DNA of 64,000 nucleotides from Sinorhizobium terangae. Its GTDB lineage: Bacteria > Pseudomonadota > Alphaproteobacteria > Rhizobiales > Rhizobiaceae. The notes under the pieces were generated by a model. That model had not been told where the DNA came from and made no database searches. It saw only the letters and a list, made by a program, of their open reading frames with translations. The translations under genes were made by a program, and so were the position numbers. How positions within the stretch are numbered: position 1 is the stretch's first letter; every line of letters begins with the position of its first letter. The stretch spans positions 1,426,001 to 1,490,000 of the forward strand of contig NZ_CP121659.1 in the NCBI RefSeq assembly GCF_029714365.1, written 5' to 3'. Below, piece by piece: positions 15,905 through 46,048 of the stretch.

Positions 15905-16163
15905 GCCAAGCCCATTTGGTTTGATCCGTCGCTGAACGCAACTCTAAATTGATTCGCTCTGCGGGCGAAGGTCGGAGGTTAGCCTCGCACCGATCGGCGG
16001 CGACTTGGACTTCGTCGGTTGTCGAGAACATCCCGAAGCCAGTCGCCTCCAAGCGCGTCTCTCCGCGATGGTGAGCCCAATAGTGGCCGTCGGACCAGCA
16101 GGTGCGGCGGCCCTGGTGATTGACGCTAGGCGCGCCTGAAATTGGTCGCGGGATCAGTGTCAA
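15897..16163 (-). CDS. Possible small protein before the sce7725-like gene
   Basis: An open frame of up to 88 residues whose stop overlaps the sce7725-like start (ATGTTTGA), which would couple their translation. The middle (TCWSDGHYWAHHRGETRLEATGFG) looks protein-like, but there is no clear start codon with a ribosome-binding site, and the 5' part overlaps the end of dadA. It could equally be non-coding spacer. Confidence 0.28.
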   Translation of the reverse strand: MTLIPRPISGAPSVNHQGRRTCWSDGHYWAHHRGETRLEATGFGMFSTTDEVQVAADRCEANLRPSPAERINLELRSATDQTKWAWHV

Positions 16164-17373
16164 CCAGATCCGCGACCATTTCGGCTGTCACACACGACAG
16201 CGTCCATCCAAGATGCCCGTGACCGGTATTATAGAAAACGTTCGGGCGTTTTCCGCGTCGCACCCGTGGCATCATGTTCGGCATCATCGGTCTTAGGCCA
16301 CTCCATGGTACGACACGCGATGTCGAGACGTGGGGGAAAAGTCGCTCGACCCAGGCTATTAGGGGTTTTACTCGATCGTGCCGAATGTCGCGGTTCGGAC
16401 CGTTAAACTCCGCGGTGCCCGCGACTCGGAACCTGTCGATCCCCAGCCTGCTGGTCACGATCTTGGCTCTGTCGTCCAGCATGCTCACCCATGGGGCGCT
16501 ATCCCGGCTTTTTTCATCATCAAGGTGGACGGTGATCGAGTATCCTTTCACCGGATACACGTTGATGCGGTCTCCCAACAATGCAGCAAGATGGCGACTG
16601 CCCACCCCGGCGCAGACAACCACGGCATCGGCGGCCAGGCGCTGAGCCTCGCCTGTTGGGTCGCCTATCGCGCGATATGTTACGACTATCGAGCCATTGG
16701 CCTCTACCCCGGTAATCTCCGCTTGCGGAATGAACTCGGCCCCCTTGCGCTGGCACGCATCGGCAAGGCCTCGTGTGAACTTATGGATGTCGCCGGTAGA
16801 ATCCGATGGCGTAAAAAACCCGCCGTAGAACGATCCGAGTAGCGTCGGCTCGATGGCAGAGATTTCGGTCGGAGTGACAGCACGTCTGTCCAGTCCGCCA
16901 CGCCTGAGCAGCTCGTTCACGGCCAATGCGGCATCGAAGCTCGGCTTGTCGTAGTAGACATGCAGGATGCCCCGCCTCTCGAGATCGAAATCTATGCCTT
17001 CATTCTCCGCCACTGCGAACAAGTGCTTGCGCGCGGCGATTGCGAGCCGGGTGGTCTCAATCGTGTTGTCTTCATAATGCGGGATGTTCGCTGTGAACTC
17101 GGCCAGCCAAGAATACTTGTGCCAGCCAGGTAAGGGGTTCAGCAGCAGTGGCGCATCCTTCTTGAGCATCCAGCCGATACCCTTCCTGATGGTCGCCCAG
17201 TTCGTCCATACCTCCGCATTGCTCGCCGAAAGCTGGCCGCCGTTCGCGAACGACGTCTCCATCGCTGGATAGCGATGGCGATCAACGACGGTGACGCGAT
17301 GCCCGCGCTGCAGGAGTGCGTAAGCAGTTGTGACGCCAGTGATACCCGCGCCCAGTACAACGATGTGCGGCAT
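16126..17373 (-). CDS. dadA: D-amino acid dehydrogenase, small subunit type
   Basis: 415 residues. An FAD-binding Rossmann motif opens the protein (VVLGAGITGVTTAYALLQRGHRV, then VVDR), followed by the DadA hallmark ETSFANGGQLSAS. The C-terminal block DIRHDRVKPLIAW...GLRPMMPNMMP and GHGHLGWTL match the DAO-fold flavin site. It oxidises D-amino acids to 2-oxo acids and feeds electrons to the respiratory chain at the inner membrane. The ATG at 17373 follows GGGAGGAATA. It diverges from the peptide importer, with a shared operator-like region between, so I infer it degrades D-amino acids released from imported peptides. Confidence 0.93.
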   Translation of the reverse strand: MPHIVVLGAGITGVTTAYALLQRGHRVTVVDRHRYPAMETSFANGGQLSASNAEVWTNWATIRKGIGWMLKKDAPLLLNPLPGWHKYSWLAEFTANIPHYEDNTIETTRLAIAARKHLFAVAENEGIDFDLERRGILHVYYDKPSFDAALAVNELLRRGGLDRRAVTPTEISAIEPTLLGSFYGGFFTPSDSTGDIHKFTRGLADACQRKGAEFIPQAEITGVEANGSIVVTYRAIGDPTGEAQRLAADAVVVCAGVGSRHLAALLGDRINVYPVKGYSITVHLDDEKSRDSAPWVSMLDDRAKIVTSRLGIDRFRVAGTAEFNGPNRDIRHDRVKPLIAWVERLFPHVSTSRVVPWSGLRPMMPNMMPRVRRGKRPNVFYNTGHGHLGWTLSCVTAEMVADLVDTDPATNFRRA

Positions 17374-17431
17374 TATTCCTCCCGATTCAGTGGTCTGGAT
17401 CCCGATGCCAATCTTAGCAAGCGGGCCCAAA

Positions 17432-17478
17432 AATGATAGTCAAATAATATCCTTTACAAAATGATAGTTATGTATCAA
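17432..17478. promoter_or_regulatory. Operator-like motif between dadA and the peptide importer
   Basis: AATGATAGTCAAATAATAT (17432-17450) matches 25183-25201 (AATGATAGCAAAATAATAT) at 17 of 19 positions. A second AAATGATAG follows at 17458, starting a short inverted repeat (TGATA...TATCA, 17462-17477). The position between two divergent genes and the shared copy before the peptidase/RpiR operon suggest binding by the RpiR regulator encoded at 23089-23997. Confidence 0.55.
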
Positions 17479-17539
17479 CATCAAAATGAAGTGACGGATA
17501 GGGAACACCGCGCTTTTGTGAAAACAGGGAGGTATGGCA

Positions 17540-19150
17540 ATGGCACCGCTCAAGCAGGCTTTGGTATGCACATGGATGGCAGCTTCGACGGCCCTGGTCG
17601 CTACGATGGCGACCCCGTTCACGGTTCACGCGGCAACGCCAGGGGACACTTTAGTCCAGGCTCTGCAGATCGATGACATCATCACTCTGGACCCCGCCGA
17701 GCTCTTCGAGTTCAGCACGGCTGAAATTGCGGGCAACACGTACGAACGCCTGTTTTCTTATGACTACAGCGACGTCTCTAAGGTCTCTGGTGAAGTCGCG
17801 GAATCGTGGGCCGTCTCGGACGACGGCAAAACGTTCACCTTCAAGATCCGCGCAGGCAAGAAGTTCGCCTCTGGCAATCCGTTGACTGCCGAGGACGTGG
17901 TGTTTTCACTTCAGCGGGCCGTCATTCTCGACAAGTCGCCGGCCTTCATTATCGGCCAGTTGGGCTTCGACAAGAACAATGTGAAGGACAGGATCAAGCA
18001 GACCGGCCCCTTTGAGTTCACGATGGAACTCAATCAGCCTTATGCGCCGACCTTTGTCCTCTACTGCCTGACGTCACCCGTCGCATCCATCGTCGACAAG
18101 CTGTTGCTGACGCAACACGAGAGTGACGGCGATCTTGGCTACCATTGGCTCAAGACCCATTATGCTGGTTCCGGCCCTTTCGCCATTCGTGACTGGAAGG
18201 CGAACGAGGTCGTGGTCTTGGAGCGGAACCCAAACTACGAGAAGAAGACGCCTCTGCAGCGCGTGATTTACCGTCACATCAAGGAAACTGCGACACAGCG
18301 CCTGCTGCTGGAGAAAGGCGACGTCGACATCTCCCGCAATCTGAGTCCGGAGGAAATCGACGCGGTGTCGAAGAATCCCGATATCAAGATCAACGAGGGC
18401 GCGAAAAGCACCATCTACTACCTGGGTCTCAATCAAAAGAATCCGAACCTCGCCAAGCCAGAGGTCCGCGAGGCTCTGAGATGGCTCGTCGACTACGGGG
18501 CCATCACCGACACGATCATGAGATATAAGGGCGAGATCCATCAGACTTTCCTGCCGAGAGGGTATCTGGGCGCACTGGACTCAAACCCCTACCACCTCGA
18601 CATTGCCAAGGCGAAGGGTCTGCTCGCCAAAGCCGGTCTGGCGGACGGCTTCACCGTCACCATGGATACCCGCTCGACGCCGGAAATCACCGGTATCGCA
18701 CAGGCGATTCAGGCGACCTTCGCAGAGGCAGGCGTCAAGCTGGAGATCATTCCAGGTGACCTTAAGCAGACCCTGACCAAATATCGCTCCCGGCAGCACG
18801 ATATCTTCATCGGCAACTGGGGCTCCGATTATCCGGATCCGAACTCCAATGCGGATGTGTTCGCGGCAAACGAGGACAACTCGGACGATGCCGCCGCTAA
18901 GCCGCTAGCATGGCGAAACTCCTGGGATCCAGGGTCGTTGACCGGCCAGACCCGCGCCGCTGTCATGGAGAGCGATCCTCAAAAGCGCGCCGAGATGTAC
19001 GAGGAACTGCAGAGAGCCGTGCTCAAGGACGGCCCGTTCGTCATCTTCCTGCAGCAGACCGAGGTCGCCGCCGAACGCAAGAATGTCGATGGCTTCGTCA
19101 TTGGGCCGTCCTTCGACACCAACAGCTTTGCGCAAGCCAAGAAGAACTGA
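17540..19150 (+). CDS. Oligopeptide ABC transporter, substrate-binding protein
   Basis: 536 residues, SBP_bac_5 family. A signal peptide runs to about residue 34 (ALVATMATPFTVHA), so it is periplasmic. Family blocks are present: NTYERLFSYD, AESWAVSDDGKTFTFKIR, LTAEDVVFSLQR, and late PDPNSNADVF. It binds peptides and delivers them to the two permeases behind it. I chose the ATG at 17540, which is 7 bases after AGGGAGG; the ATG at 17534 is only 1 base after it. It is the first gene of a tightly packed five-gene operon (spacing 7, -1, -1 and 2 bp). The substrate is not readable from sequence, but context points to D-aminoacyl or beta-peptides. Confidence 0.92.
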   Translation: MAPLKQALVCTWMAASTALVATMATPFTVHAATPGDTLVQALQIDDIITLDPAELFEFSTAEIAGNTYERLFSYDYSDVSKVSGEVAESWAVSDDGKTFTFKIRAGKKFASGNPLTAEDVVFSLQRAVILDKSPAFIIGQLGFDKNNVKDRIKQTGPFEFTMELNQPYAPTFVLYCLTSPVASIVDKLLLTQHESDGDLGYHWLKTHYAGSGPFAIRDWKANEVVVLERNPNYEKKTPLQRVIYRHIKETATQRLLLEKGDVDISRNLSPEEIDAVSKNPDIKINEGAKSTIYYLGLNQKNPNLAKPEVREALRWLVDYGAITDTIMRYKGEIHQTFLPRGYLGALDSNPYHLDIAKAKGLLAKAGLADGFTVTMDTRSTPEITGIAQAIQATFAEAGVKLEIIPGDLKQTLTKYRSRQHDIFIGNWGSDYPDPNSNADVFAANEDNSDDAAAKPLAWRNSWDPGSLTGQTRAAVMESDPQKRAEMYEELQRAVLKDGPFVIFLQQTEVAAERKNVDGFVIGPSFDTNSFAQAKKN

Positions 19151-19157
19151 TTTTCCG

Positions 19158-20210
19158 ATGGCACACCTACTCGTGGACGGTAGCAAAGGGCATGACGCCC
19201 TTTGCTACCTGGCAAAGCTCGCCCAGTTCGTTTTCGTACTGGCAACGACCCTCCTCGGACTCGTCGCCGTCACCTTCCTGATTGGGCGTGTCGTTCCGAT
19301 CGACCCGGTCCTTGCCATCGTAGGTGATCGCGCCAGCCCCCAAATCTATGCGCGCGCGCGGCAGGAGCTCGGGCTTGATCTGCCGCTCGTCGAGCAGTTC
19401 TGGACCTATCTGAAGAAGGCCGCGACGGGCGATTTCGGCAATTCGGTCCTCACCACCAATCCAGTGATGGCCGACATCGCCAACGCCTTTCCAGCAACTT
19501 TCGAATTGGCGACACTAGGCACCCTTGTCGGCATGCTGTTGGGCATCCCGCTCGGTGTTCTCGCCGCCGTCAAGCGCGGCAGCATTATCGACCACGTCGT
19601 TCGACTCCTCGGGCTCGCCGGCTATTCCATTCCGGTGTTCTGGCTCGGCCTCATGTGCCTGCTGCTCTTCTATGCCAAGCTAGAATGGGTCGGTGGGCCG
19701 GGGCGCATCGACGTGACCTATTCCTATCTCTACACGCCGGTCACCAACATCGTTCTCATCGACGCCGCCATTCAGGGCCAATGGGAGGCGTTCTGGGACG
19801 CAGTTTCGCATGTCATCCTGCCGGCCTGCCTGCTCGGCTACTATTCGCTCGCCTACATCAGCCGGATGACGCGCTCGTTCATGCTCAACGAGCTGGCACA
19901 GGAATACGTCATCGCGGCGCGCGTGAAGGGACTTTCCGAGTTACGAGTGATCTGGCGTCATGCCCTGCGCAATGCGGCCGTGCCGCTGGTCACCGTGGTC
20001 GCGCTGTCCTATGCGAACCTGCTTGAAGGCTCCGTGCTGACGGAAACGGTGTTCGCGTGGCCAGGTCTCGGCCAATACATGACCAATTCCCTTCAGAACG
20101 CCGACATGAATGCGGTCCTGGGCGGAACGATCGCGATCGGCACCGTCTTTGTGCTGCTCAACCTCGTCTCCGACCTTCTCTACCGCCTGCTGGACCCGAG
20201 GACCCGCTGA
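19158..20210 (+). CDS. Oligopeptide ABC transporter permease (DppB type)
   Basis: 350 residues with about six transmembrane helices. The first helix (FVFVLATTLLGLVAVTFLIGR) is followed by the DppB-type periplasmic PIDPVLAIVGDRASP segment and, near the end, the EAA loop (AARVKGLSELRVIWRHALRNA) that docks to the ATPases. The start is the ATG at 19158, 7 bp after the binding-protein stop. Its TGA overlaps the next ATG, so it is translationally coupled to the second permease. Confidence 0.93.
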   Translation: MAHLLVDGSKGHDALCYLAKLAQFVFVLATTLLGLVAVTFLIGRVVPIDPVLAIVGDRASPQIYARARQELGLDLPLVEQFWTYLKKAATGDFGNSVLTTNPVMADIANAFPATFELATLGTLVGMLLGIPLGVLAAVKRGSIIDHVVRLLGLAGYSIPVFWLGLMCLLLFYAKLEWVGGPGRIDVTYSYLYTPVTNIVLIDAAIQGQWEAFWDAVSHVILPACLLGYYSLAYISRMTRSFMLNELAQEYVIAARVKGLSELRVIWRHALRNAAVPLVTVVALSYANLLEGSVLTETVFAWPGLGQYMTNSLQNADMNAVLGGTIAIGTVFVLLNLVSDLLYRLLDPRTR

Positions 20211-21142
20211 TGACTAGCGCCCCTTCGTCTCCCCAATGCTCCGGCCTGCGGGCTTGGCTCCTTTCAACCGAACCAGGCTCTCGCTGGCAGGCGCGCCTGG
20301 GCCGAGGGTATATCGGCTGGCGCTCGTTCACCAGGAACCCGCTCGCCGTCCTGGGCCTCGGCATCGTGGCTGCCCTGATACTTGTCGCGATTTTTGCCGA
20401 TGGCATAGCCCCCCATTCTCCGGTGATCGGCGGCGACCTGCGCACGCAGCGCCTGCTACCGCCGAGCGACGCCTTTTGGCTTGGTACAGACGACCAGGCG
20501 CGGGATATTTTTTCCCGCCTCGTCCATGGCTCGCGCATCACGCTGTTCGTCATCGTTCTGGTATCTCTGATCGCTACGCCCATCGGCCTGCTGGTTGGCA
20601 CCATCTCCGGCTATCGTGGCGGGTGGATCGATACGGCCCTGATGCGGATCACCGACATCTTCCTGGCCTTTCCGCGCCTCATACTGGCGCTGGCCTTCGT
20701 GGCGGCGCTTGGTCCGGGCATTGAGAACGCAGTCATTGCGATCGCGATCACCTCCTGGCCCCCTTACGCCCGCATCGCACGCGCGGAGACGTTGATGATA
20801 CGCAAGAGCGACTTCATCGCGGCCGTGAGGCTCCAGGGCGCCTCAACCGCCCGCGTCATCCTTGGCCACGTGGTGCCGCTGTGCATCCCGTCACTGGTCG
20901 TGCGCGTCACGCTCGACATGGCCGGCATCATCCTAACCGCGGCCGGGCTCGGCTTCCTCGGCCTCGGCGCTCAGCCGCCGATGCCGGAATGGGGTGCGAT
21001 GATCGCCGCCGGGCGCAACTACCTTGTCGATCAATGGTGGGTCGCTGCGATGCCTGGTCTCGCCATCTTCGTGGTGAGCCTCAGTTTCAACCTGTTGGGC
21101 GACGGCTTGCGCGACGTCCTGGATCCGAAGGCTGCGAAGTGA
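20210..21142 (+). CDS. Oligopeptide ABC transporter permease (DppC type)
   Basis: 310 residues. The N-terminal cytoplasmic part contains the OppC-type SFTRNPLAVLGLGIVAALIL helix, then the conserved LGTDDQARDIFSRLVHGSRITL block and an EAA loop (AAVRLQGASTARVILGHVVPL). It pairs with the DppB-type protein to form the membrane channel. The ATG at 20210 lies in the ATGA overlap with the preceding gene, and its stop overlaps the ATG of the first ATPase gene. Confidence 0.93.
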   Translation: MTSAPSSPQCSGLRAWLLSTEPGSRWQARLGRGYIGWRSFTRNPLAVLGLGIVAALILVAIFADGIAPHSPVIGGDLRTQRLLPPSDAFWLGTDDQARDIFSRLVHGSRITLFVIVLVSLIATPIGLLVGTISGYRGGWIDTALMRITDIFLAFPRLILALAFVAALGPGIENAVIAIAITSWPPYARIARAETLMIRKSDFIAAVRLQGASTARVILGHVVPLCIPSLVVRVTLDMAGIILTAAGLGFLGLGAQPPMPEWGAMIAAGRNYLVDQWWVAAMPGLAIFVVSLSFNLLGDGLRDVLDPKAAK

Positions 21143-21975
21143 TGAAACCGCTTCTCGAACTCGAAGACCTTCGGGTCCGCTTCCATCTGCGCACGGGCAC
21201 CGTCGAGGCCGTTCGCGGCGTTTCGTTCCGGCTCGGCCGCGAGCGGCTCGGCATCGTCGGCGAATCCGGTTCAGGAAAATCGCAAACGGGCCGCGCCATC
21301 CTGGGTCTCACACCACCTTCAGGAGACGTCACGGCCAGTCGTCTGGACTTCGATGGGGTCGATCTGCTCAAGGCCTCGCGGCGCACGCTTCGCCAACTGC
21401 GCGGCGGGCGCATCAGCATGGTGATGCAGGATCCGAAATACTCTCTCAACCCGGTCATGACCCTCGGCGAACAGATCGTCGAAGCTTACAGGGCGCATGC
21501 CAGAGCATCCCGCGCGGAGGCTCGCGACAGGACGCTGGCCATACTTGAAGCGGTGAAGATCAGCGACCCCCGGCGCGTATTCTCGCTCTACCCGCACGAA
21601 GTCTCGGGGGGCATGGGTCAGCGTGCGATGATCGCCATGATGCTCGTAACCAATCCCGATCTGCTGATTGCCGACGAACCGACGTCGGCCCTCGACGTCA
21701 CGGTCTCGATGGAGGTGTTGCGCATCCTCGACGAGCTCGTCTCGGAGCGCGGGATGGGTCTGATCTTCGTCTCGCATGACCTGAAGCTCGTATCCTCTTT
21801 CTGCGACCGAGTGCTCGTGATGTATGCGGGCCGGGTGGTGGAGGAACTGGAGGCTACGAAACTCAAGGAAGCCGAGCATCCTTATACGCAGGGGCTGATC
21901 CGGTGCATGCCTACTCTGAAGAACGAGGTGCGCCCGCTGCCAACGCTCAACCGCGATCCTTCCTGGGGGCTGTGA
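21142..21975 (+). CDS. Oligopeptide ABC transporter ATP-binding protein (DppD type)
   Basis: 277 residues. Walker A is GESGSGKS, the signature is VSGGMGQRAMIAM (a GGMxQR variant typical of DppD), Walker B is LLIADEPTSALD, and the switch His is in FVSHDL. It energises peptide uptake together with the second ATPase. Its ATG overlaps the permease stop by one base. The C-terminal part ends with HPYTQGLIRCMPTL, the usual Dpp/Opp tail, and lacks a clear Cys-rich iron-sulfur motif. Confidence 0.93.
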   Translation: MKPLLELEDLRVRFHLRTGTVEAVRGVSFRLGRERLGIVGESGSGKSQTGRAILGLTPPSGDVTASRLDFDGVDLLKASRRTLRQLRGGRISMVMQDPKYSLNPVMTLGEQIVEAYRAHARASRAEARDRTLAILEAVKISDPRRVFSLYPHEVSGGMGQRAMIAMMLVTNPDLLIADEPTSALDVTVSMEVLRILDELVSERGMGLIFVSHDLKLVSSFCDRVLVMYAGRVVEELEATKLKEAEHPYTQGLIRCMPTLKNEVRPLPTLNRDPSWGL

Positions 21976-21977
21976 TC

Positions 21978-22784
21978 ATGCTAGACATTCGGAATCTCAA
22001 TGTCGCCTTCGGTACGGGGCGGCTCGGCGTGGTCGCGGTCAAGAACATGAGCTTCAGCGTGGCGCGTGGCGAAGCTTACGGCCTCGTCGGCGAGTCCGGC
22101 TCGGGCAAGTCCACGGGGCTGCGCGCGATCTGCGGCCTCGCGCCGATCCGCAGTGGAAGTGTGACGGTGGAGGGCAGGCAAGTCGCCACGCCGCGCGACA
22201 AAGCCTTCTACCGTTCGGTGCAGATGGTTTTTCAGGACCCTTACGCCTCGCTCCACCCGCGCCATACGGTCGATCGCACGTTGTCCGAACCCCTCGCCAT
22301 CCACGGTGAGAGGGATGTCGAGGCGCGGATCCTCGAGGCACTCAGAGAAGTGGGACTTGGCCCTTCCTTCCGCTTCCGCTATCCCCACCAGCTCTCGGGC
22401 GGCCAGCGCCAGCGCATCGCAATAGCCCGCGCACTGATACTGCGCCCCAAGGTGCTGCTGCTCGATGAACCGACCTCGGCGCTCGACGCTTCCGTGCAGG
22501 CTGAGATCCTGAACCTTCTTGATGACCTGCGCCAGAGGATGGGACTGACCTACGTTCTGGTGAGCCATGATCTCGCGGTCGTCGCGCATTTGTGCAAGCG
22601 CCTGCTGGTGATGCGCCATGGCGAGACCGTCGAGGAGACGACGTCCGAGGCGCTGCGGTCAGGGAACGCTTCGAACGAGTACACCCGGTCACTGATTAAG
22701 GCGAGTCAGGGATTCGCGCGTGAGTGCACTCCATCGGCAGCGGACCCCGCCAGCCGAGGACATCGGTCATGTCATGGTGGGTGA
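21978..22784 (+). CDS. Oligopeptide ABC transporter ATP-binding protein (DppF type)
   Basis: 268 residues. Walker A GESGSGKST, Q-loop MVFQDPYASLHPRHT (the DppF hallmark), signature LSGGQRQRIAIARAL, Walker B VLLLDEPTSALD and H-loop LVSHDL are all present. It forms the heterodimer with the DppD-type ATPase, 2 bp upstream. The last 25 residues are poorly conserved in character and run into the spacer before the RpiR gene. The spacer (22785-23088) holds only a weak open frame that I do not annotate. Confidence 0.92.
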   Translation: MLDIRNLNVAFGTGRLGVVAVKNMSFSVARGEAYGLVGESGSGKSTGLRAICGLAPIRSGSVTVEGRQVATPRDKAFYRSVQMVFQDPYASLHPRHTVDRTLSEPLAIHGERDVEARILEALREVGLGPSFRFRYPHQLSGGQRQRIAIARALILRPKVLLLDEPTSALDASVQAEILNLLDDLRQRMGLTYVLVSHDLAVVAHLCKRLLVMRHGETVEETTSEALRSGNASNEYTRSLIKASQGFARECTPSAADPASRGHRSCHGG

Positions 22785-23088: not shown

Positions 23089-23997
23089 CTACTCCGCAAA
23101 ACTTCCAAAGTTGTCCTGCAGCTCTTGGAGCCGCTGGCCGCGCTTCTTGACCAACGGACCCAGACGGCGGATGACCTCGTCCACAAGAAGACCGAGAAAG
23201 GCCGTCACCGGCGCATTACTCTCCCAGAACATATCGATGTCGGTGGCGATGCGGAAAACATTGTCCGTCAGTTCCTCTGCCCAGTAGCACACGGAATCCG
23301 TGACGATCACAGTATCGATGTTGGCCTGCGAAGCCTGCCGGGCCAGAAGCATGGCCTGCTTCGCATACCGTCGGACATCCACGAGGATGAGTACCGGTTT
23401 TCCGACGTCATCCGCGAACAGTTCGCTGTAAGTACCGCTGACGCCGTCCAAGAAGCGGACACGCGGGCGGGCGTATTCGAGACGCAGGGCAAAATCCATG
23501 GCCAGACCCCGCACGGTCTGAAAGCCTGCGACATACACGCGATCGGCCCTGGCGACCGTCTCCGCAACCTGGCTGAACCTGGCGGTGCGGGCGAGCTCGT
23601 AGGTGCCGATAATCGACTTCAATTCCAAATCGAGACTTCCAGAGAGGCCATGAGCCTCGCGGTCCTCCTCACTCCTGGAACGTTCGGCCGAGGTGATGCG
23701 CTCGTACCGCTCTCCCACGAGCCAGGCGATCTGATGAATCGTGCTACCCAGTTCCTCCTTAAGAGCGGAAAGGTTCTCATAGCCGAGTGAACGCAGGAAG
23801 CGCCCCATGGTCATGGGGCTGAGCTTGAGCTTGCTCGCGATCGAGGCCGCGGTCTCGAAAGGAATGTCGCGGACGTTCGCGACTAGATAGGCCGCGATGG
23901 CGCTTTCCGCCTTCGAGAAGGTAGCCTGCCGTTCCTTGATCTTCTCGACGAAGGGGAAGGATGGCGGCGCCGGCTGGGGCGCTTCCTTGCGGCTCAT
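23089..23997 (-). CDS. RpiR/MurR-family transcriptional regulator
   Basis: 302 residues. The N-terminal HTH_6 domain contains ERQATFSKAESAIAAYLVAN and FETAASIASKLKLSPMTMGRFLRSLGY. The C-terminal SIS domain runs from about 150 (RVYVAGFQTVRGLAMDF...VLILVDVRRYAKQAMLLARQA) and normally binds a phosphosugar or related ligand. The ATG at 23997 overlaps the peptidase stop by 4 bp (ATGA), so it is co-translated with the peptidase. I infer it controls both that operon and the dadA/importer intergenic region through the shared AT-rich motif. Confidence 0.9.
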   Translation of the reverse strand: MSRKEAPQPAPPSFPFVEKIKERQATFSKAESAIAAYLVANVRDIPFETAASIASKLKLSPMTMGRFLRSLGYENLSALKEELGSTIHQIAWLVGERYERITSAERSRSEEDREAHGLSGSLDLELKSIIGTYELARTARFSQVAETVARADRVYVAGFQTVRGLAMDFALRLEYARPRVRFLDGVSGTYSELFADDVGKPVLILVDVRRYAKQAMLLARQASQANIDTVIVTDSVCYWAEELTDNVFRIATDIDMFWESNAPVTAFLGLLVDEVIRRLGPLVKKRGQRLQELQDNFGSFAE

Positions 23998-25124
23998 GCG
24001 TTCAATCGTCCATAGTTGCGCATAACCTCCTTTACAGCATCGTGCTCGATGGAGGCAACAAGCCTGTCCTCGCGTCCCACCATCGACTCGGCCGCCACCA
24101 TGGCATTGATGATTGCTTCCTCCACGGCCTGCGCCGTCGCCTCGAAAAGTGAATCGAGCCTGTTGTTCGGCAGGAAGGCAAGGTTACCCAATTCCGGCTG
24201 GGTCGCCGATTCACTCATCGTAAGGTTTGCCGTTGAGAAGGCGAGGCACAGATCGCCGGATCCGTCCCCGGACGGTGTTCCGGTCCGGCCGATTCCGAGT
24301 CCAGCACGTCGGGCGAGTCGTTCCAACTGGGTGGGCATCAGGGGCGCGTCGGTCGCCACGACCGCGATGATCGAGCCCTGCTCGCCGGCCCAGAGTCGGT
24401 TCGAGGCGAGGTGTTCGCCAACGGGTACCCCCAGTATTTTTAAGAGAGGCCGAATGCCAAAATTCGCTTGTACAAGGCAGCCTACGGTATAGCTGGCACC
24501 GAGTAGGTCCACGACGCGGGACGAGGTTCCCGTCCCTCCTTTGAACTCGAAGCAGATCATACCGGTTCCGCCGCCGACGTTGCCCTCGGCCAAAGGTCCG
24601 CCGGAAGCGCTATCGAGAGCCTCTACTACGTGCGCGGGCGTGACATGGAATGCGTTAATGTCGTTGAGATAGGCGTCGCACGTTTCGGCCACCACGGGCA
24701 GCATGAATTTATAAGCCGCAAGCCCGGCGTCCGGCTTCCCGATCATCCATTGCAGCATTGCCTGATGAACGGTTCCAAGGCTATGGGTGTTGGTTATGCC
24801 GATGGGTCCCAGAAAATACCCGGCTTCCCTGATCCAGTGCGTGCCCGTCATCTCACCGTTTCCATTAAGCGAGTGGAAGCCGGCCCATACGGGTACCCGC
24901 AAAAGGCCTGAGCGGCCTCTTGGAAGTATGGCAGTGACACCAGTGCGAGCCGGTCCCTTACCCGCTCCGGGGGAGTCGTTGATCACGGTCGCGTAACCGA
25001 CCTCCACACCGGAAACATCCGTGATGGCGTTGAAAGGGCCGGTCTTTCCCGAAAAGGGCAGGCCCAGGTCCCGCGCCCGCGGCTTTGTATGGGCTCCAGA
25101 TGCCAAGCGCTGAACGATCTCCAT
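23994..25124 (-). CDS. P1-family (DmpA-type) aminopeptidase
   Basis: 376 residues, close to the length of DmpA from Ochrobactrum. These N-terminal-nucleophile enzymes self-cleave before a Ser; here G250-S251 in EQGSIIAVVATDAPL is the matching site. Other family blocks: FNAITDVSGVEVGYAT, GITNTHSLGTVHQAM, and GNVGGGTGM...FKGGTGTSSRVV. Known members release N-terminal D-Ala or beta-Ala residues from peptides and D-esters. The gene is first in an operon with RpiR and has the shared operator motif 58 bp upstream. Together with the importer and dadA it forms a pathway for peptides with D- or beta-amino acids; substrate preference is inferred. Confidence 0.92.
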   Translation of the reverse strand: MEIVQRLASGAHTKPRARDLGLPFSGKTGPFNAITDVSGVEVGYATVINDSPGAGKGPARTGVTAILPRGRSGLLRVPVWAGFHSLNGNGEMTGTHWIREAGYFLGPIGITNTHSLGTVHQAMLQWMIGKPDAGLAAYKFMLPVVAETCDAYLNDINAFHVTPAHVVEALDSASGGPLAEGNVGGGTGMICFEFKGGTGTSSRVVDLLGASYTVGCLVQANFGIRPLLKILGVPVGEHLASNRLWAGEQGSIIAVVATDAPLMPTQLERLARRAGLGIGRTGTPSGDGSGDLCLAFSTANLTMSESATQPELGNLAFLPNNRLDSLFEATAQAVEEAIINAMVAAESMVGREDRLVASIEHDAVKEVMRNYGRLNA

Positions 25125-25182
25125 TGGGTATCCTCATTCTTTGGGTTTCGCTTCCGCGTTACTCTAACGAGCATTTGCGTGA

Positions 25183-25209
25183 AATGATAGCAAAATAATA
25201 TTTTGTCAT
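25183..25209. promoter_or_regulatory. Operator-like palindrome upstream of the P1 peptidase/rpiR operon
   Basis: TGATAGCAAAATA and its near-complement TATTTTGTCATCA form a 27-bp palindrome around one central base, with 11 of 13 arm positions pairing. The same core occurs at 17432-17450. It lies about 60 bp before the peptidase start, a typical operator position. Confidence 0.6.
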
Positions 25210-25229
25210 CAAAGATATTTAGATAACAT

Positions 25230-26219
25230 TAGTGCCGAAATCGCCACCGAGCAACGGTGCGCGAAAGACAGGAACGCGGTGCCCCTGCCCGCCGAGCTTG
25301 AGGAGGCTGATGCGCGAAACGCACAAGCCTATTACTCTCGCCCGCGATCCACTCCGCCGTGATTTCATCCCTCAGTTGCCCCTACTCGCGGCCGCGGAAC
25401 TGTCTGCCCTTGAATTGGAAACGCCCTGCCGGACAGCCCGCACCCGAGCACCGTCCAACCCTTTGGCCTTGATGCCATCACTAGTGCGTACCCACGCGAC
25501 GGTGCGCCTCGGATGCTTACGCCCTCTGTCGGGTTTGTAGGATTCGCGACACAGGAATGACGAGTCAATTTCGTTCTTCCTGCGGTAGATGGCTGAAACC
25601 CAGTCAAAGACGTCTTTTCGGCTCTATTGGGAAGATGGCACGATGCTTGCTCGCTTCGTTACGAGCCGGCGCGAGCAGCGGACCGGCATTCATGTCGCGG
25701 ACACTGCGATGCACAGAGAAGAAGAGAAGAAAGGGAAGCTGCATGTCAGCTCAGGCAAATCCCGTAATACTGGGGAGCGTCGTCCAAGCCAGCACCGCCT
25801 TAGGTCCACCGCAGGCCCGACTGCGTCCGACTGTGCAGATTCGGGCGCGGCAATCTCCATCGGACCCGTTGGCGTTCGCTGGAAAACAGAATCGCCACAC
25901 GCGAATTCGCGGGAACCGCCACAGCAGCACCGAAGACGTGCGGAGTGGATGCTTCATCATTCCGAGGGGCGGCGGGCCCGCCTCCGGCCTGCTCTCTGGA
26001 CAAGACCCACTGAGGCTGCAGCGGGTCTTGAGAGAGATGCTCCCCCTGGTCCGGCTGTCCGCTGCTGCTCTTTCACGTACTCCCGTGGCTTATGCCGCGA
26101 CGGCTGCCGCGTGACCCCATCTCCGTGAACGGCCTCACCTACCCTCCCCTCCGAAAGCTGCTCCTCCCCCATCAACCGCATCGATCAAACCCAGGACGCC
26201 ACCGCCGCGGCTCGTCGGC
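25230..26219. other. About 1 kb without a recognisable gene
   Basis: Several overlapping open frames exist on both strands, but none has a convincing start or reads like a known protein. A plus-strand frame from 25744 (MSAQANPVILGSVVQASTAL...) follows AAGGGAAGC and could be translated, but its composition (Arg/Ser-rich) is typical of a shadow. The segment may be a remnant between the peptide-use block and the panD cluster. Confidence 0.4.
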
Positions 26220-26246
26220 ATGTCGTCCCACACAGGAGACTCGTGG

Positions 26247-26705
26247 ATGAGAAAAGTCATTGCCGCCAAGCTTCATGGCATCACCGTGACGGACGCGGAT
26301 CTGAACTACCACGGTTCAATAACCCTGGATCCAGATCATTGCGATGAGGCGGGTATCCTTCCGCTGGAATTCGTAGAGATCTGGAACAAGGCCTCGGGCG
26401 CGCGAATCAGCACGTATGTCATCTACGGCGAGAGGGGCTCTCGTTGCTGTGTGCTGAACGGGGCCGCTGCTCGCACCTGCCAAATCGGGGACGAGATAAT
26501 CGTTTGCTCGTCGGCATATGTTGAGAAGAGTCAGATTGCAGAGATCAAACCGCGAGTGCTGACGTTCAATCGGGACAATTCTGTGCGCGACCGCATGTTT
26601 TACGATGCTGGAGCCAGGGAGGATGGAACAATGACGTTCAGCGTTCGCGAGGGGTCTCTTGATGGCACCACCCTAAAGACTCCAGTTCGGGCCAATCGGT
26701 CGTAG
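26247..26705 (+). CDS. panD: Aspartate 1-decarboxylase
   Basis: 152 residues. PanD makes beta-alanine from L-aspartate using a pyruvoyl group formed by self-cleavage. The cleavage site YHGSITLD is present (Gly23-Ser24), with Lys8, and the STYVIYGERGSRCCVLNGAAAR block matches the catalytic region of PanD. The protein is about 25 residues longer than the E. coli enzyme at its C-terminus. The ATG at 26247 follows CAGGAGA. Here panD is not with panB/panC but with a Ddl-like ligase, an exporter and a racemase, so its beta-alanine may feed a secondary product rather than pantothenate. Confidence 0.93.
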   Translation: MRKVIAAKLHGITVTDADLNYHGSITLDPDHCDEAGILPLEFVEIWNKASGARISTYVIYGERGSRCCVLNGAAARTCQIGDEIIVCSSAYVEKSQIAEIKPRVLTFNRDNSVRDRMFYDAGAREDGTMTFSVREGSLDGTTLKTPVRANRS

Positions 26706-26825
26706 CGCACCGGATCGGGCTTGACGGGGAGGACTGTCGCCGAACGGGGACCACACCCGTTGGGCCAGATGCTCTTCGTCTCCAAAGGCGACCGCGAAAC
26801 CGCAACTCAACGAAAGGGATCTGCC

Positions 26826-27914
26826 ATGCAATTGGCGCTCATGTATGGGGGCCGGTCGGTCGAGCACGACTGGTCGATCGCGATGTACAATCACTTCGCC
26901 GACGTTCTCAACAGTGCTCCCGACATTTCACCAGTATCCATCTATTACATCGCACGTTCGGGGGAGCTGCTAAGGCTACCCCTGGATGGCAGCGTTCCCA
27001 AGCACGAAGAGTTTGCAGCGCGTGCAGAAACGCATCAGCTCGATTCTCTCGCTCACCTACTCAAGAGCGACGGGCATTTCGTCTTCTCACTTCTTCAAGG
27101 GCAGGACGGCGAGGACGGCCAAATTCAGGCGCTAGCTCAGTTCCACGACATTCCAGGCAGCTTTGGCGACAAGACTGCGGCGATGCTTGCAGCAGACAAG
27201 TACCTGCAATGTCTGATTGTAAATCGGCTCTGCGCCGACTTGACGCCCATTCCGACGGTCCACGTCTCGCAATGCAACCTCGAGCTTGGTATCGCAGCGG
27301 CCCTGCGGCAACTTTCTGGCTCGTGTGTCCTGAAGCCGAACACGCTCGGAGGTTCGTTCCATACGGAATGTGTGGACGCGCTCTCGGCGGACGGCCTCCG
27401 TTCCTATTCGCGGCGGATCGCTCCATATGACGCCTCCTTCTTGGTTCAGCGGCGAATTGTCGGAATGGAGTACACCTGCGGCGTTTTAATCGACCGCCAT
27501 AGCATTACGGCGCTTCCGGTCGCGCGGTTCAACAATCCCTCGGGCTTCCTCGGATATGATCAGAAGACGCAGAAAGGCAGCTACTCTGTCGAGTTTGACA
27601 TAGAGAACAGCCTTCAAACCCGTATCGCCGCGATCTCCAGGCAAATTGCTATGGAGTTCAGGCTCCACACGTTCGCCCGCCTCGATTTCATCGTCGACGA
27701 GGAAGAACGCATTCACTTCTTCGAAGTCAACGTGGTTCCGGGACTTACCGCAGGGAGCGTCTACCCCAAGATGCTCGCCGAAGCTGGTTTGGACTTGTGC
27801 CACGTCGTTCGGCTAGCTGCCTCCAATGAAGAGTACCACCGGCACCGGGAAGCGCTTCGCAAGACCGCCACGAGCCGCATCCGCTATGGACTACCAGTGG
27901 CCGCGGCAACCTAG
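26826..27914 (+). CDS. D-Ala-D-Ala-ligase-like ATP-grasp enzyme
   Basis: 362 residues of the Ddl family. The N-terminal part (LALMYGGRSVEHDWSI) matches the GGxSxEHxVS motif. The ATP-grasp core has VLKPNTLGGS, GMEYTCGVLI and, near the end, RLDFIVDEEERIHFFEVNVVPGLTAGSVYPK, which holds the metal-binding Glu/Asn of EVN. Such enzymes join two amino acids through an acyl phosphate. The divergence from housekeeping Ddl and the position between panD and an EamA exporter suggest a dipeptide ligase with a different substrate, possibly beta-alanine. The start follows GAAAGGGATCTGCC. There is no ddl-typical mur cluster nearby. Confidence 0.82.
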   Translation: MQLALMYGGRSVEHDWSIAMYNHFADVLNSAPDISPVSIYYIARSGELLRLPLDGSVPKHEEFAARAETHQLDSLAHLLKSDGHFVFSLLQGQDGEDGQIQALAQFHDIPGSFGDKTAAMLAADKYLQCLIVNRLCADLTPIPTVHVSQCNLELGIAAALRQLSGSCVLKPNTLGGSFHTECVDALSADGLRSYSRRIAPYDASFLVQRRIVGMEYTCGVLIDRHSITALPVARFNNPSGFLGYDQKTQKGSYSVEFDIENSLQTRIAAISRQIAMEFRLHTFARLDFIVDEEERIHFFEVNVVPGLTAGSVYPKMLAEAGLDLCHVVRLAASNEEYHRHREALRKTATSRIRYGLPVAAAT

Positions 27915-27989
27915 TCCCCTTCGCGCGTCCCGTTCGTGACCCTGGACTGTCGGTCATGGCATGAGACGCCTTTCAGCAGGTGATCCGAT

Positions 27990-28907
27990 ATGGACTCGAG
28001 GAACGCAATGAAAATACGCGCACATCCTTTTGGCAACCTTGTGCCGCCGGTGGCTACCGCTGTCGCCCTCATGGTGGCCGGATCGGCGCTCGCACCGCTG
28101 ATCGACGCTGCGGGCAAGAAAATGGTGGCCTCATACGCCGTCTTTCAGATCGTGTGGATTCGCTACGCTGTGCATGCTTTCACGACCGGTACATTGACGG
28201 CAGTTGGTCGGCAGGGGGTGGAAGCGCTCAAGCCCACCAAAGTGCAGCTTCTGAGAGGGGCCGCACAGTTCGGCTCAACTCTCTTTTTCATGGCGGCTCT
28301 TCGGACGTTGTCGCTCACCAGCGCTCTGGTGATCGTGTTCCTCGCCCCCCTTATCGTCGTCATCGTCAGATCAGCGCTTGGTTTGGCGGGCGCCGACAGG
28401 CGCAGCGTCCTGATTGCCGCGCTCGGGGCACTAGGCGTCCTCTTCGCCTACGCACCGCAATTGACCAGCTTCCAGCCGATTGGCGGGCTATGCGCGATTG
28501 TCGCGGCAATCTTGCTTGCACTGTACTTCTTGGTAACTGGGCATGTGGCCGCGACATCCGGCAGTATAGTCAATAGCTTTCATACAGCTTGGCCCGGCGC
28601 CGTACTAGGAGCGCCGTTTGCGCTGATTTCCTTTGCAAACCCGACAGCACCCGACTGGCTGATCCTGATCGGCATGGGTCTAACGTCGGCGCTTAGTCAC
28701 TTCCTCGTCTCCGCCGCCATGCGGACGCCATTCTCGAGCTCGATCGCACCTGCGGCCTACGTCGAAGTCCCTGCCGGCGCATTCTACGCCGCACTGCTCT
28801 TCGGACATTATCCGACCCCTTCAGAGATCATTGGCGGGGTGATGGTCGTGGTTGCTGGCATGTGTATTGCTCTCCATCTAGGCCGCGGAAAGTCTCCTGG
28901 CCCATGA
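27990..28907 (+). CDS. EamA/DMT-family transporter
   Basis: 305 residues with about ten transmembrane helices in two EamA repeats, the second ending AAYVEVPAGAFYAALLFGHYPTPSEIIGG. Family members include exporters of amino acids and small metabolites. A start at 27990 (after AGGTGA) or at 28008 (after GAGGAA) is possible. Its place directly after the ATP-grasp ligase (75 bp) suggests export of that enzyme's product. Confidence 0.88.
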   Translation: MDSRNAMKIRAHPFGNLVPPVATAVALMVAGSALAPLIDAAGKKMVASYAVFQIVWIRYAVHAFTTGTLTAVGRQGVEALKPTKVQLLRGAAQFGSTLFFMAALRTLSLTSALVIVFLAPLIVVIVRSALGLAGADRRSVLIAALGALGVLFAYAPQLTSFQPIGGLCAIVAAILLALYFLVTGHVAATSGSIVNSFHTAWPGAVLGAPFALISFANPTAPDWLILIGMGLTSALSHFLVSAAMRTPFSSSIAPAAYVEVPAGAFYAALLFGHYPTPSEIIGGVMVVVAGMCIALHLGRGKSPGP

Positions 28908-28992
28908 CGGGTTCCCCGAGTGTTCGGACAGAGGCCGAAGTGCGCACAAATCGAAATCAGGTATTAATTTGCAGAGACGAGGTCCATTGATC

Positions 28993-29700
28993 ATGCTGAA
29001 CAATAATAGCAAACAAAGGAGAATAGCTCTGGTTGGCGGCGTAAGCTGGGCGTCATCGGCCGAATATTACAGGCGTCTGAACATAATTCTAACCGACTCG
29101 GATGAGCCTGGGCTCGTCGCAGTGGACCTGAACTTTAAACACGTGCTGGAGGCTCAAGAGCTGAATATATTTGAAAAAGAAATGGAGTTGGTCAGCGACG
29201 GCATTTCGCGTGCGGCGCGCGCCGGAGGAGAAATTATACTGGTATGCTCGAACACTACGAGCAGGACACTAAATAGTGTCGCCCATCCAGACGTAGAGGT
29301 CATCAGCTTGATCGACTGCGTCTCATCTCACCTTGATGAATTAAAGTACACGGAAACCCTTCTTCTGGGGACGCGATATACGATGGAACGCGACTTCTAC
29401 CGGTCGGCGATGCAGCGACAGGATAGGAAAATTAGAATTCCAGAAGGTGATGATCGCAAGAAAATCCACGGCATCATATACGATGAATTATGCAGAGGCA
29501 AAATTCTGCACACTTCAAAGCAATGGTTTCGCGAAATGCTTGAGTTTTACACCGCCAAGTTCACCAAGCTTGATAGTATTATACTTGGCTGCACCGAGCT
29601 TTCATTGCTGGGAATGCCGGAAACGGTTAATCAATGCGCTGTGATCGACACCATCGCCGTTCACATTGACACTGCTCTTCAAGTGGCATCGATTGCATGA
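28993..29700 (+). CDS. Aspartate/glutamate racemase-family protein
   Basis: 235 residues. The two catalytic Cys motifs are LVCSNTTSR and LGCTELSLLGMP, as in cofactor-independent Asp/Glu racemases. The start IALVGGVSWASSAEYYRRLN is the family's first strand-loop. Codon use is clearly more AT-rich than in its neighbours (many AAT, ATA and AAA codons), which suggests separate acquisition. It ends the panD/ligase/exporter group and could supply a D-amino acid for the ligase; the exact substrate is not readable. Confidence 0.88.
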   Translation: MLNNNSKQRRIALVGGVSWASSAEYYRRLNIILTDSDEPGLVAVDLNFKHVLEAQELNIFEKEMELVSDGISRAARAGGEIILVCSNTTSRTLNSVAHPDVEVISLIDCVSSHLDELKYTETLLLGTRYTMERDFYRSAMQRQDRKIRIPEGDDRKKIHGIIYDELCRGKILHTSKQWFREMLEFYTAKFTKLDSIILGCTELSLLGMPETVNQCAVIDTIAVHIDTALQVASIA

Positions 29701-29932
29701 ACTCCACCTTAACGGAGCCAAGTGGGAAGTCGTGAATACTCGGGAAAGCCGGTCGACGGAGCCACGGTCGCCCGGTGGAAGCTATCGAGCAGGAGGCTGT
29801 ATCAAGAAGCTCCCATAGGCCGCGTGATCGGGAGACGGTCTCGCGCCAACGAAAGAGTAGCTCGGGACCGCGAAATTGGGCGTGCCGAAGCCACCTTCCT
29901 GGGAGCTAGGGAGCGCGACCTGCGAAAGGCGG

Positions 29933-30907: not shown

Positions 30908-30919
30908 CTATGACACTCC

Positions 30920-31621
30920 TCAATTCTGCTTCAGTGCCGCATGGACCGTCGCCTGCGCCAGGGCGACACAGGGATCGATCAGCGGCACATCCAATTCGGC
31001 GATCGGGCCGACCAAAGAAATTTCCGAGCAGCCAAGAATGATCGCCTCCGCTCCGCTCTGCGCTAGGTCGCTGACCATCCGAAAGATCTCGCTTCGAACC
31101 TCGACACTCCGATCGCCGGCCTTGATCCGAGCGAGCGCATGCATCAAGTGCTCCTGATCGCCGGCCGCCTGCAGCATGGAGGTCAGTCCGCAACCGGCAA
31201 GCCGCTCCTGATAGATTTCGGACTGCAAGCAGCCTTTCGTCCCTAGCAGGCCAACCCGTGTACATCGGGGGAAATCCGACCGGATACTCCTTACCGTTTC
31301 CTCGATCATGCTGATGAAGGGGACGGAAACCGACGCTTTCAGCTCGCGCTCATAGACATGGGCTGCATTGCAAACCATGACGATGAGGTCCGCCCCGGCG
31401 CTCTCGAGACGTTTGGCGTTCTCGACAAGCGCGGCCGCCGCACCTGGGCCGGTGCCAAGTATAGCGGCATTGATATCGGGGACCTTCGGATTGCAGTCGA
31501 CGAGCATGTGAAGATGGTCGCGCTCGCTCTCTATCGGCGTCAGCTCCAACACCGAGTTCATGAAGGCGATAGTGGCCATGGGGCCAAGCCCGCCAATGAT
31601 TCCGACCGTCTTTTGCGACAT
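30920..31621 (-). CDS. Aspartate/glutamate racemase-family protein
   Basis: 233 residues. The first Cys motif is MVCNAAHVY and the second is ILGCSEISLV; the start VGIIGGLGPMATIAFM is typical of the amino-acid racemase subfamily. Unlike the AT-rich racemase at 28993, base composition here matches the neighbours. It is followed by the DenD-like gene and preceded by LysR on the same strand, which suggests LysR control or a shared transcript. Confidence 0.9.
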   Translation of the reverse strand: MSQKTVGIIGGLGPMATIAFMNSVLELTPIESERDHLHMLVDCNPKVPDINAAILGTGPGAAAALVENAKRLESAGADLIVMVCNAAHVYERELKASVSVPFISMIEETVRSIRSDFPRCTRVGLLGTKGCLQSEIYQERLAGCGLTSMLQAAGDQEHLMHALARIKAGDRSVEVRSEIFRMVSDLAQSGAEAIILGCSEISLVGPIAELDVPLIDPCVALAQATVHAALKQN

Positions 31622-31762
31622 GCCACCCTCCCACTCGAGTACTTAGCCGCAGGACACGGAGCGCACCGATTTTCGCCGCCCGTGCGGCCACTATGCCGCT
31701 GGTGGTAACGAGGAAAATCCAGTGCGTCCAATTATCTTACATACCACCGGTCATTAGCCCTT

Positions 31763-46038: not shown

Positions 46039-46048
46039 TGTAGTCCCC

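What the first reader, a model, noticed from the sequence alone, without database searches (positions are those of the whole stretch)
26247..29700. Unusual panD/ATP-grasp ligase/exporter/racemase cluster next to a beta-peptidase operon
PanD supplies beta-alanine, a Ddl-like ATP-grasp enzyme can join amino acids, an EamA protein can export the product, and a racemase can supply a D-amino acid. P1/DmpA peptidases known in other organisms release beta-Ala or D-Ala from peptides, and one sits a kilobase away in the neighbouring import operon. The combined layout suggests a small natural product such as a beta-alanyl or D-amino-acid dipeptide, made and also taken back up. I know of no described cluster with this composition.
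Basis: inference. Interest (0 to 1): 0.75.

Follow-up and report, generated by a model that had tools for sequence, protein, structure and literature searches.

The report
Nodule-timed beta-amino-acid peptide gene cluster
In a nitrogen-fixing legume symbiont, a small set of genes that looks able to make a peptide containing an unusual (beta) amino acid sits behind a copied nitrogenase-gene switch, next to genes that look able to take such a peptide back up and break it down, which suggests a private food or signal made inside root nodules.

Summary
The four genes are real: panD, a D-Ala-D-Ala-ligase-like ATP-grasp enzyme, an EamA permease and an Asp/Glu racemase, in one direction. The genome has a second panD and two far better Ddl matches, so vitamin or cell-wall supply is unlikely. 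The key new fact: 596-711 bp before panD, a NifA activator site and an exact sigma-54 promoter lie in a degenerate copy of this genome's nifH promoter (0 of 1000 shuffles score as high). Nine of ten panD loci of this clade, all from rhizobia, carry such a NifA/sigma-54 pair. In three loci without panD the same ligase lies near a lysine-2,3-aminomutase-like gene, another beta-amino-acid maker. The neighbouring S58 peptidase (84-86% identical to copies near panD-ligase in two other genera) shares an operator with dadA/opp, so import, cleavage and D-amino-acid oxidation look like one RpiR regulon. Best reading: a beta-alanyl/D-amino-acid dipeptide made in bacteroids under NifA and re-used by free-living kin, like a rhizopine with different chemistry. 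Product, expression here and the cycle are inferred, not shown. The permease and racemase were found with these genes nowhere else; one relative has alanine racemase there, another its remnant.

The parts
25524..25690 (+). degenerate copy of the nifH promoter region of the same genome (covers the NifA site and the -24/-12 element, not the nifH start)
   Evidence: 68% over 177 aligned columns, E 9e-6, 1.9e-5 in the genome scan; 47.3 bits against at most 33.7 in 1000 dinucleotide shuffles, 393 of which gave any hit
25536..25551 (+). NifA upstream activator site TGT-N10-ACA
   Evidence: 100 bp upstream of the -24 element. Alone it is not rare: 9 in the window, 6.6 expected
25636..25651 (+). sigma-54 -24/-12 promoter, exact match to the consensus
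   Evidence: only exact match in the window; one of 10 in the genome, against 5 for the reversed control pattern
25743..25750 (+). possible remnant of the nifH start codon region
   Evidence: placed against the nifH ATGTCAG start in the alignment only; weak, outside the blast match
26247..26705 (+). panD, aspartate 1-decarboxylase, symbiotic clade; Gly-Ser self-cleavage site present
   Evidence: 83-91% identical to nine other PanDs of this clade, 66% to the second PanD of this genome
26826..27914 (+). Ddl-like ATP-grasp amino acid ligase
   Evidence: altered motifs against this genome's two ordinary Ddls
27990..28907 (+). EamA (DMT) family permease, likely exporter
   Evidence: no relative at E 1e-15 in 72,556 plasmid records
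28993..29700 (+). Asp/Glu racemase family protein
   Evidence: GC 48% against 55-62% for the other genes measured
23994..25124 (-). S58 (P1/DmpA) aminopeptidase
   Evidence: DmpA 1b65 413 bits; BapA 3n2w 312 bits; 84-86% identical in 5 plasmid records
23089..23997 (-). MurR/RpiR-type regulator, overlapping the S58 gene
   Evidence: Pfam HTH_6 27.9 and SIS 22.6, both just under cut-off; 74-81% identical to genes annotated MurR/RpiR beside S58
25182..25201 (.). operator-like repeat upstream of the S58 gene
17431..17450 (.). same operator-like repeat between dadA and oppA
16126..17373 (-). dadA-like D-amino acid dehydrogenase (DAO family); start codon chosen by me
17534..19150 (+). oppA-type peptide-binding protein (SBP_bac_5)
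19158..20210 (+). oppB permease
20210..21142 (+). oppC permease
21142..21975 (+). oppD ATPase
21978..22784 (+). oppF ATPase

Best explanation
The operon panD-ligase-eamA-racemase is switched on by NifA and sigma-54 in nitrogen-fixing bacteroids from a captured copy of the nifH promoter. PanD turns aspartate into beta-alanine; the racemase supplies a D-amino acid (perhaps D-Asp or D-Glu here; D-Ala by alanine racemase in a relative); the Ddl-like ligase joins them, using ATP, into a small peptide; EamA exports it. Outside the nodule, free-living cells of the same strain import the peptide with the Opp transporter, split it with the S58 peptidase and oxidise the D-amino acid with the DadA-like enzyme; these genes form a separate regulon of the RpiR-type protein, relieved when the peptide is present. 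This is the logic of a rhizopine (made by bacteroids, eaten by kin) with new chemistry. Shown by sequence: the genes, the promoter copy, its conservation, the shared operator-like repeat, the recurring gene neighbours. Inferred: the substrates, the direction of the joint, export, which protein binds the repeat, actual expression, and the nodule-to-soil cycle.
For: NifA site and sigma-54 site 100 bp apart inside a nifH-promoter copy. 9 of 10 panD loci of this clade have such a pair, spacing 91-106 bp, against 0-3 of 300 shuffles per locus and none at the genome's second panD. panD-ligase side by side in the window and six further distinct loci: L004, L005, L006, L022, L023, L024. Ligase near KamA, without panD in the stretch held, in L007, L008, L060. 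S58 after panD-ligase-alr in Mesorhizobium, remnants in the same order in Rhizobium T136/T1470. Operator-like repeat identical at 18 fixed positions before S58 and between dadA and oppA, one mismatch before S58 in L006, L032, L028. A 30%-identical ligase (P. phymatum Bphy_7633) and the MATE gene after it have log2FC -8.45 and -8.21 in nifA-mutant nodules (PMC8305402, table rows seen), and the ligase stands at -3.7 in the rpoN-mutant table of PMC5979394.
Against: No expression, enzyme or metabolite data for this strain. The cluster is on C1, not on C3 with nifH. The leader from the sigma-54 site to panD is 611 bp, longer than the 96-363 bp in the eight relatives with a pair. EamA and the racemase were found with these genes nowhere else; the racemase has Ser where 5hqt has Thr83 (that this is a catalytic position is recalled). 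L005, L022, L023 and L024 have panD-ligase but no match to this S58 in the DNA held (L023 is only 3.4 kb). DadA and OppA are not of a symbiosis-specific clade. R. gallicum L033 has no NifA/sigma-54 pair. In P. phymatum another 'ATP-grasp' gene goes up (+2.26) in the nifA mutant, and the ordinary ddl also falls (-3.0) in the rpoN mutant, so the rpoN effect is not specific to this ligase.
Confidence: 0.5

Rival explanations
1. The peptide is a nodule-made antimetabolite or a signal to the plant or to rivals, not a food. The S58 enzyme and Opp serve as immunity, turnover or scavenging.
For: ATP-grasp ligases next to exporters are a common layout of small peptide antibiotics (recalled). An exporter gene lies next to the ligase here (EamA) and next to the distant P. 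phymatum ligase (MATE). P. zundukense carries S58-RpiR, with no ligase hit in that record and no panD hit among the 60 of 284 records listed, as expected of a resister or a cheater.
Against: A D-amino acid dehydrogenase and a full peptide importer share the S58 operator-like repeat, which fits use as nutrient better than immunity.
Confidence: 0.25
2. The nodule-timed panD only supplies beta-alanine for pantothenate and CoA in bacteroids; the ligase is a separate function.
For: Most rhizobia lack PanD and some need pantothenate (PMC10228743 passages). A NifA-driven panD could relieve that in the nodule. Three of 8 plasmid records with this panD lack this ligase.
Against: This genome has a second intact panD on C3. 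The ligase follows panD in 7 of 7 distinct loci that have both and, where panD is missing, lies near a 2,3-aminomutase-like gene, which is not a known source of pantothenate (recalled).
Confidence: 0.1
3. Chance neighbours: the dadA-opp-S58 import genes and the panD-ligase operon landed side by side on an accessory stretch of the chromosome and have nothing to do with each other.
For: The stretch is accessory: 4 of 33 genomes of the genus, own genome included, have the ligase and 1 of 33 (own only) this S58; it also holds defence-like genes. DadA/OppA are of ordinary clades.
Against: S58 of the same narrow clade lies within 8 kb of panD-ligase in Mesorhizobium and Rhizobium too: 4 of 5 plasmid records with this S58 also hold the ligase, three of them near-identical strains.
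Confidence: 0.15

Closest known systems
Rhizopine synthesis and catabolism (mos/moc) of Sinorhizobium meliloti L5-30
   Same: Symbiotically regulated synthesis linked to catabolic genes for the same small compound (titles of Murphy 1987 and 1988 seen in reference lists; the concept in PMC8416774 passages).
   Different: Inosamine chemistry there; here aspartate decarboxylase, ATP-grasp ligase, racemase and a beta-peptidase. None of the 16 genes scanned between 16126 and 34216 carries a mos/moc name; no dedicated mos/moc search was run.
D-Ala-D-Ala ligase family (Ddl, VanA-type)
   Same: Same two Pfam domains and conserved core.
   Different: 9 of 9 clade members aligned read KPNTLGGSF where both ordinary Ddls of this genome read KP...GSS.G; 8 of 9 read YDQK and 0 of 9 have the Ddl motif YD.KY. 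Scores are below the cut-offs of the 25 NCBIfam models shown.
NifA-dependent ligase-MATE pair Bphy_7633-7634 of Paraburkholderia phymatum STM815
   Same: Ddl-like ligase next to an exporter on the symbiotic plasmid, NifA-dependent in nodules, with NifA and sigma-54-like sites 95 bp apart upstream.
   Different: Only 30% identical; no panD, KamA or S58 gene annotated in the 17 kb shown.
DmpA and BapA aminopeptidases (S58)
   Same: Near full-length match to DmpA (413 bits) and BapA (312 bits), with the GSI motif conserved (that it holds the nucleophile is recalled).
   Different: In known cases not tied to a NifA-controlled peptide-making operon (recalled).

Membership tests
Rhizopine system (works like) | synthesis genes under nodule/nif control | tested here: met
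   In silico only: NifA + sigma-54 pair in a nifH-promoter copy
Rhizopine system (works like) | catabolic genes linked to synthesis genes in the same strain | tested here: met
   S58-rpiR 1.1 kb from panD, dadA/opp within 10 kb, shared operator-like repeat; that they act on this product is inferred
Rhizopine system (works like) | on the symbiotic plasmid | tested here: not met
   Window is on C1, nifH on C3. Of the ten panD loci 6 are plasmid records of legume-associated rhizobia, 3 are contigs of unknown replicon
Rhizopine system (works like) | compound present in nodules and used by free-living kin | not testable with these tools
   needs metabolomics and growth tests
mos/moc rhizopine genes (membership) | inosamine-synthesis and moc-type genes | tested here: inconclusive
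   no such name among the 16 genes scanned with Pfam, 10 of them also with NCBIfam; no dedicated search
Cell-wall D-Ala-D-Ala ligase | scores above NCBIfam Ddl cut-offs; the cell's main Ddl | tested here: not met
   134.8 against 245.65 for TIGR01205; stronger Ddl-domain matches elsewhere, 208.9 and 152.8 bits against 86.4
PanD aspartate 1-decarboxylase | equivalog score and Gly-Ser cleavage site | tested here: met
   122.6 over 106; YHGS aligned to E. coli YEGS
S58/DmpA aminopeptidase | family domain over cut-off and nucleophile motif | tested here: met
   384.5 bits, cut-off 23.9; alignment to 1b65
Aspartate/glutamate racemase | two catalytic positions | tested here: inconclusive
   TIGR00035 111.5 over 93.1; GCTE kept, first position Ser instead of Thr of 5hqt (roles recalled)

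The most novel reading that the evidence does not exclude
Rhizobial plasmids carry a whole unrecognised family of bacteroid-made beta-amino-acid peptides. Its genes were built by repeatedly copying the nifH promoter in front of single biosynthetic genes: PanD or a 2,3-aminomutase makes the beta-amino acid, Ddl-like or other ATP-grasp ligases join it, and an S58 beta-peptidase regulon recovers it, forming a private peptide-rhizopine economy.
Probability: 0.4. Interest if true: 0.9.

Novelty: new variant of a known kind. Interest (0 to 1): 0.78.

Why it matters
Only one chemical class of rhizopine is well known (recalled), and why a bacteroid should benefit its free-living kin is a long-standing question. 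A second, peptide-based class with clear genes on both sides would make that question testable in ordinary laboratory rhizobia. It would also show a simple way in which new nodule metabolites arise: copying the nifH promoter in front of a biosynthetic gene.

Tried and rejected
Rejected or not supported: cell-wall Ddl; the only panD of the strain; known RNA family in 15000-36000 (none over gathering score); a tRNA in the window marking an island end (none); terminators splitting the operon (5 terminator-like sites in 25000-30000 against 4.7 in shuffles). The third operator-like site of the genome (C1:1501562, 2 mismatches) lies before an unrelated ORF and is not counted. dadA/opp as a symbiosis-specific clade: not supported. 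The downstream genes 29933-34216 were not tied to the cluster. A dN/dS comparison worked for three of four pairs (0.145-0.184); the fourth failed on a stop codon.

Literature: ten searches were run. No title or abstract start listed describes this cluster, but several lists were capped (for example 20 of 1,482 and 12 of 1,103) and the library is open-access only. Of ten papers I saw only passages found by term: PMC3538637, PMC8305402, PMC8407117, PMC8416774, PMC8479133, PMC7273348, PMC10228743, PMC3999197, PMC5979394, PMC5748707. PMC8407117, PMC8479133, PMC7273348 and PMC5748707 held nothing that I used. Papers on the mos locus itself were not read; that mos has a nif-type promoter is recalled.

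Errors of mine that were put right: the sigma-54 test had an index slip, redone; the oppC query was out of frame and gives no information; one search ran before L060 was in the file set, redone. The pair rule (-12 A allowed, last base of the NifA site A or T, up to 2 mismatches) was set, where 7 of 9 panD loci of the clade met the stricter rule (L004 lacked the exact NifA site, L006 the sigma-54 site; L033 was not).
Full report
Observation. The S58 peptidase gene 23994-25124 (-) overlaps a RpiR-type regulator gene 23089-23997 (-), whose Pfam domains score just under cut-off. A dadA-like gene (16126-17373, -) and an oppABCDF operon (17534-22784, +) lie beyond. The genome is 6.63 Mb in three contigs; the window is on C1, a full nifH (439 bits) on the 566 kb C3. 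The genus is probably Sinorhizobium/Ensifer: two congeners with a hit agree in contig length with S. fredii NXT3 and S. meliloti 4H41 records (inference).

Not housekeeping. The genome has a second intact panD on C3 (143.7 bits against 141.4). With the Ddl C-terminal domain, two loci on C1 score 208.9 and 152.8 bits and one ATP-grasp gene on C3 114.3, against 86.4 for the window's ligase. The ligase scores 134.8 where TIGR01205 asks 245.65. It occurs in 4 of 33 genomes of the genus and 4 of 394 of the family sample, own genome included in both, so it is a rare accessory gene. Against both ordinary Ddls of this genome, 9 of 9 clade members have KPNTLGGSF in place of KP...GSS.G, 8 of 9 have YDQK, and 0 of 9 the Ddl motif YD.KY. 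In E. coli DdlB numbering, recalled, these would be Ser150 and Tyr216 of the first substrate site. The E.N and R.D residues of the ATP/metal site are kept in 12 of 12 aligned ligases (roles recalled).

The promoter. A NifA site (25536-25551) and an exact sigma-54 site (25636-25651, the only exact match in 64 kb) lie upstream of panD. Singly such sites are not rare (9 NifA-type matches in the window with 6.6 expected; 10 exact sigma-54 matches in the genome with 5 for the reversed control); the pair and its setting are. The stretch 25524-25690 is a degenerate copy of this genome's nifH promoter (68%, E 9e-6). A scan of the whole genome with 500 bases around the nifH start and promoter matched 5 places: nifH itself; three on C3, before a nifN-like, a P450-like and a nifQ-like gene (nifN and nifQ named by eye from ORFs; P450); and this one, the only place off C3. 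Of 1000 dinucleotide shuffles of 25500-26246 none reached its score (47.3 against at most 33.7 bits). In ten panD loci of this clade (window, L004, L005, L006, L009, L010, L022, L023, L024, L033), 9 of 10 have a NifA site 91-106 bp before a sigma-54-like site in the 1 kb upstream; per locus 0-3 of 300 shuffles did. R. gallicum R602 (L033) and the second panD of this genome have none. The rule was relaxed; under the stricter rule 7 of 9 met it. The consensus and the A at -12 of some rhizobial nifH promoters are in PMC3538637 (passages).

Relatives. tblastn with the ligase against 72,556 plasmid records gave 14 records at E 1e-20: 7 at 71-79% (Mesorhizobium 1, Rhizobium 3, Sinorhizobium 3), then 7 at 27-33%. 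Six of the 7 list a legume as source, one lists none. A scan of genome contigs gave 6 loci, three at 75-76% (two Mesorhizobium, one Sinorhizobium), each with panD just upstream, and three at 29-36% from gut bacteria. PanD is 79-91% identical in 8 plasmid records; the next listed are at 60-68% (60 of 284 records listed). panD lies beside the ligase in 5 of these 8. The other three (Mesorhizobium AR10, two R. gallicum) lack this ligase but have other ATP-grasp genes within the 24 kb shown, and two of them a lysine-2,3-aminomutase-like gene. That these plasmids are symbiosis plasmids is inferred from size and source; only L008 is named psymA.

The substitution of panD. KamA of L008 scores 328 over the subfamily cut-off of 199 and below each equivalog cut-off, so its substrate is open. 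nifH-derived stretches stand before these genes too: in L007 promoter copies before KamA and before the ligase; in L060 promoter copies before KamA and before a second ATP-grasp gene; in L008 NifA/sigma-54 pairs followed by nifH-start pieces before KamA and before the second ATP-grasp ORF. Before the ligase of L008 and L060 only a nifH-start piece without a sigma-54 site was found, so there it may be read from the KamA promoter. In L008 the second ATP-grasp ORF begins with a nifH-like N-terminus (by eye). Two unrelated makers of beta-amino acids near one ligase clade is the best evidence that the ligase uses a beta-amino acid.

The peptidase side. S58 proteins 84-86% identical to the window's are in 5 plasmid records; the next are at 57%. 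Four of the 5 also hold the ligase (three are near-identical Rhizobium strains); the fifth, P. zundukense, has S58-RpiR near an aminotransferase and an opp-like set but no ligase hit. In Mesorhizobium 131-3-5 the order is panD, ligase, alanine racemase, S58, RpiR remnant; in Rhizobium T136/T1470 fragments of alr and S58 stand in the same order before an intact RpiR gene, and a second, intact S58-RpiR pair lies upstream. So the EamA and racemase of the window stand where these two relatives have alr or its remnant. An AT-rich repeat, AAATGATAGNNAAATAATAT, occurs exactly twice in the window, between dadA and oppA and before S58; the next best have 5 mismatches. In the whole genome these are the only two exact places; a third with 2 mismatches is before an unrelated ORF; the reversed control gave 0. 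It recurs with one mismatch before S58 in L006, L032 and L028; L004 has only a 5-mismatch version. That the RpiR-type protein binds it is inferred.

Independent data. In P. phymatum STM815 the plasmid gene Bphy_7633, annotated D-Ala-D-Ala ligase and 30% identical to the window's ligase (L029), and the MATE gene Bphy_7634 next to it have log2FC -8.45 and -8.21 in nodules of a nifA mutant, with nifD at -10.05 (PMC8305402, table passages). In the same table another ATP-grasp gene, Bphy_7724, goes up by 2.26. Bphy_7633 stands at -3.7 in the rpoN-mutant table of PMC5979394, where the ordinary ddl also falls, by 3.0. Bphy_7633 is a distant relative, so this is support by analogy.

Mechanism and rivals. 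Most likely: NifA-timed synthesis of a beta-alanyl/D-amino-acid dipeptide in bacteroids and RpiR-controlled recovery by free-living kin (about 0.5 for the whole). Nodule-timed expression is the firmest step (about 0.85), a beta-amino-acid peptide next (about 0.65), the food cycle the weakest. A nodule antimetabolite or signal with S58 as turnover is the main rival (0.25); unrelated neighbours 0.15; vitamin supply 0.1.

Novelty. The logic is that of rhizopines, the chemistry is not. Ten literature searches (lists capped, open-access library) listed no paper that describes such a cluster by title or abstract start. I therefore call it a new variant of a known kind.

Noticed in passing
window 29933-34216: A small block downstream: D-erythronate dehydrogenase and cysteate racemase (CuyB) models both over cut-off, a DsdC/GcvA-like LysR regulator and glycine C-acetyltransferase; may handle a beta-hydroxy or sulfo amino acid.
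   Followed up: no
window 36518-38116, 44296-47230, 49489-51162: Genes matching anti-phage defence models: dCTPase-type deaminase, a SIR2-HerA pair, and a DpdF-like helicase.
   Followed up: partly
G000 C3:287264-289651 (L052 11265-13652): On the nif-bearing contig a pair of ATP-grasp genes 70-77% identical to those near KamA/panD in other rhizobia; only a weak sigma-54-like site (2 mismatches) upstream.
   Followed up: partly
G000 C3:389875-390179 (L061): A nifH-promoter copy stands before cytochrome P450-like genes, perhaps the rhizobial gibberellin operon (name recalled, not tested): another metabolite operon under a copied nifH promoter.
   Followed up: partly
L008 6257-7768: The second ATP-grasp ORF of S. 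meliloti KH35c psymA begins with a nifH-like N-terminus in frame, as if the nifH start was captured with its promoter (by eye).
   Followed up: no
L028 15641-16966 and L033 13118-14443: A class-III aminotransferase (PRK07483 type for L028), 63% identical between the two, lies near S58 in P. zundukense and near panD in R. gallicum; a candidate beta-alanine transaminase.
   Followed up: partly
L004 4711-8103: Methylaspartate ammonia-lyase, CoA-transferase and CoA ester lyase genes upstream of panD in Mesorhizobium 131-3-5; the first also in L022 at 70% identity.
   Followed up: no
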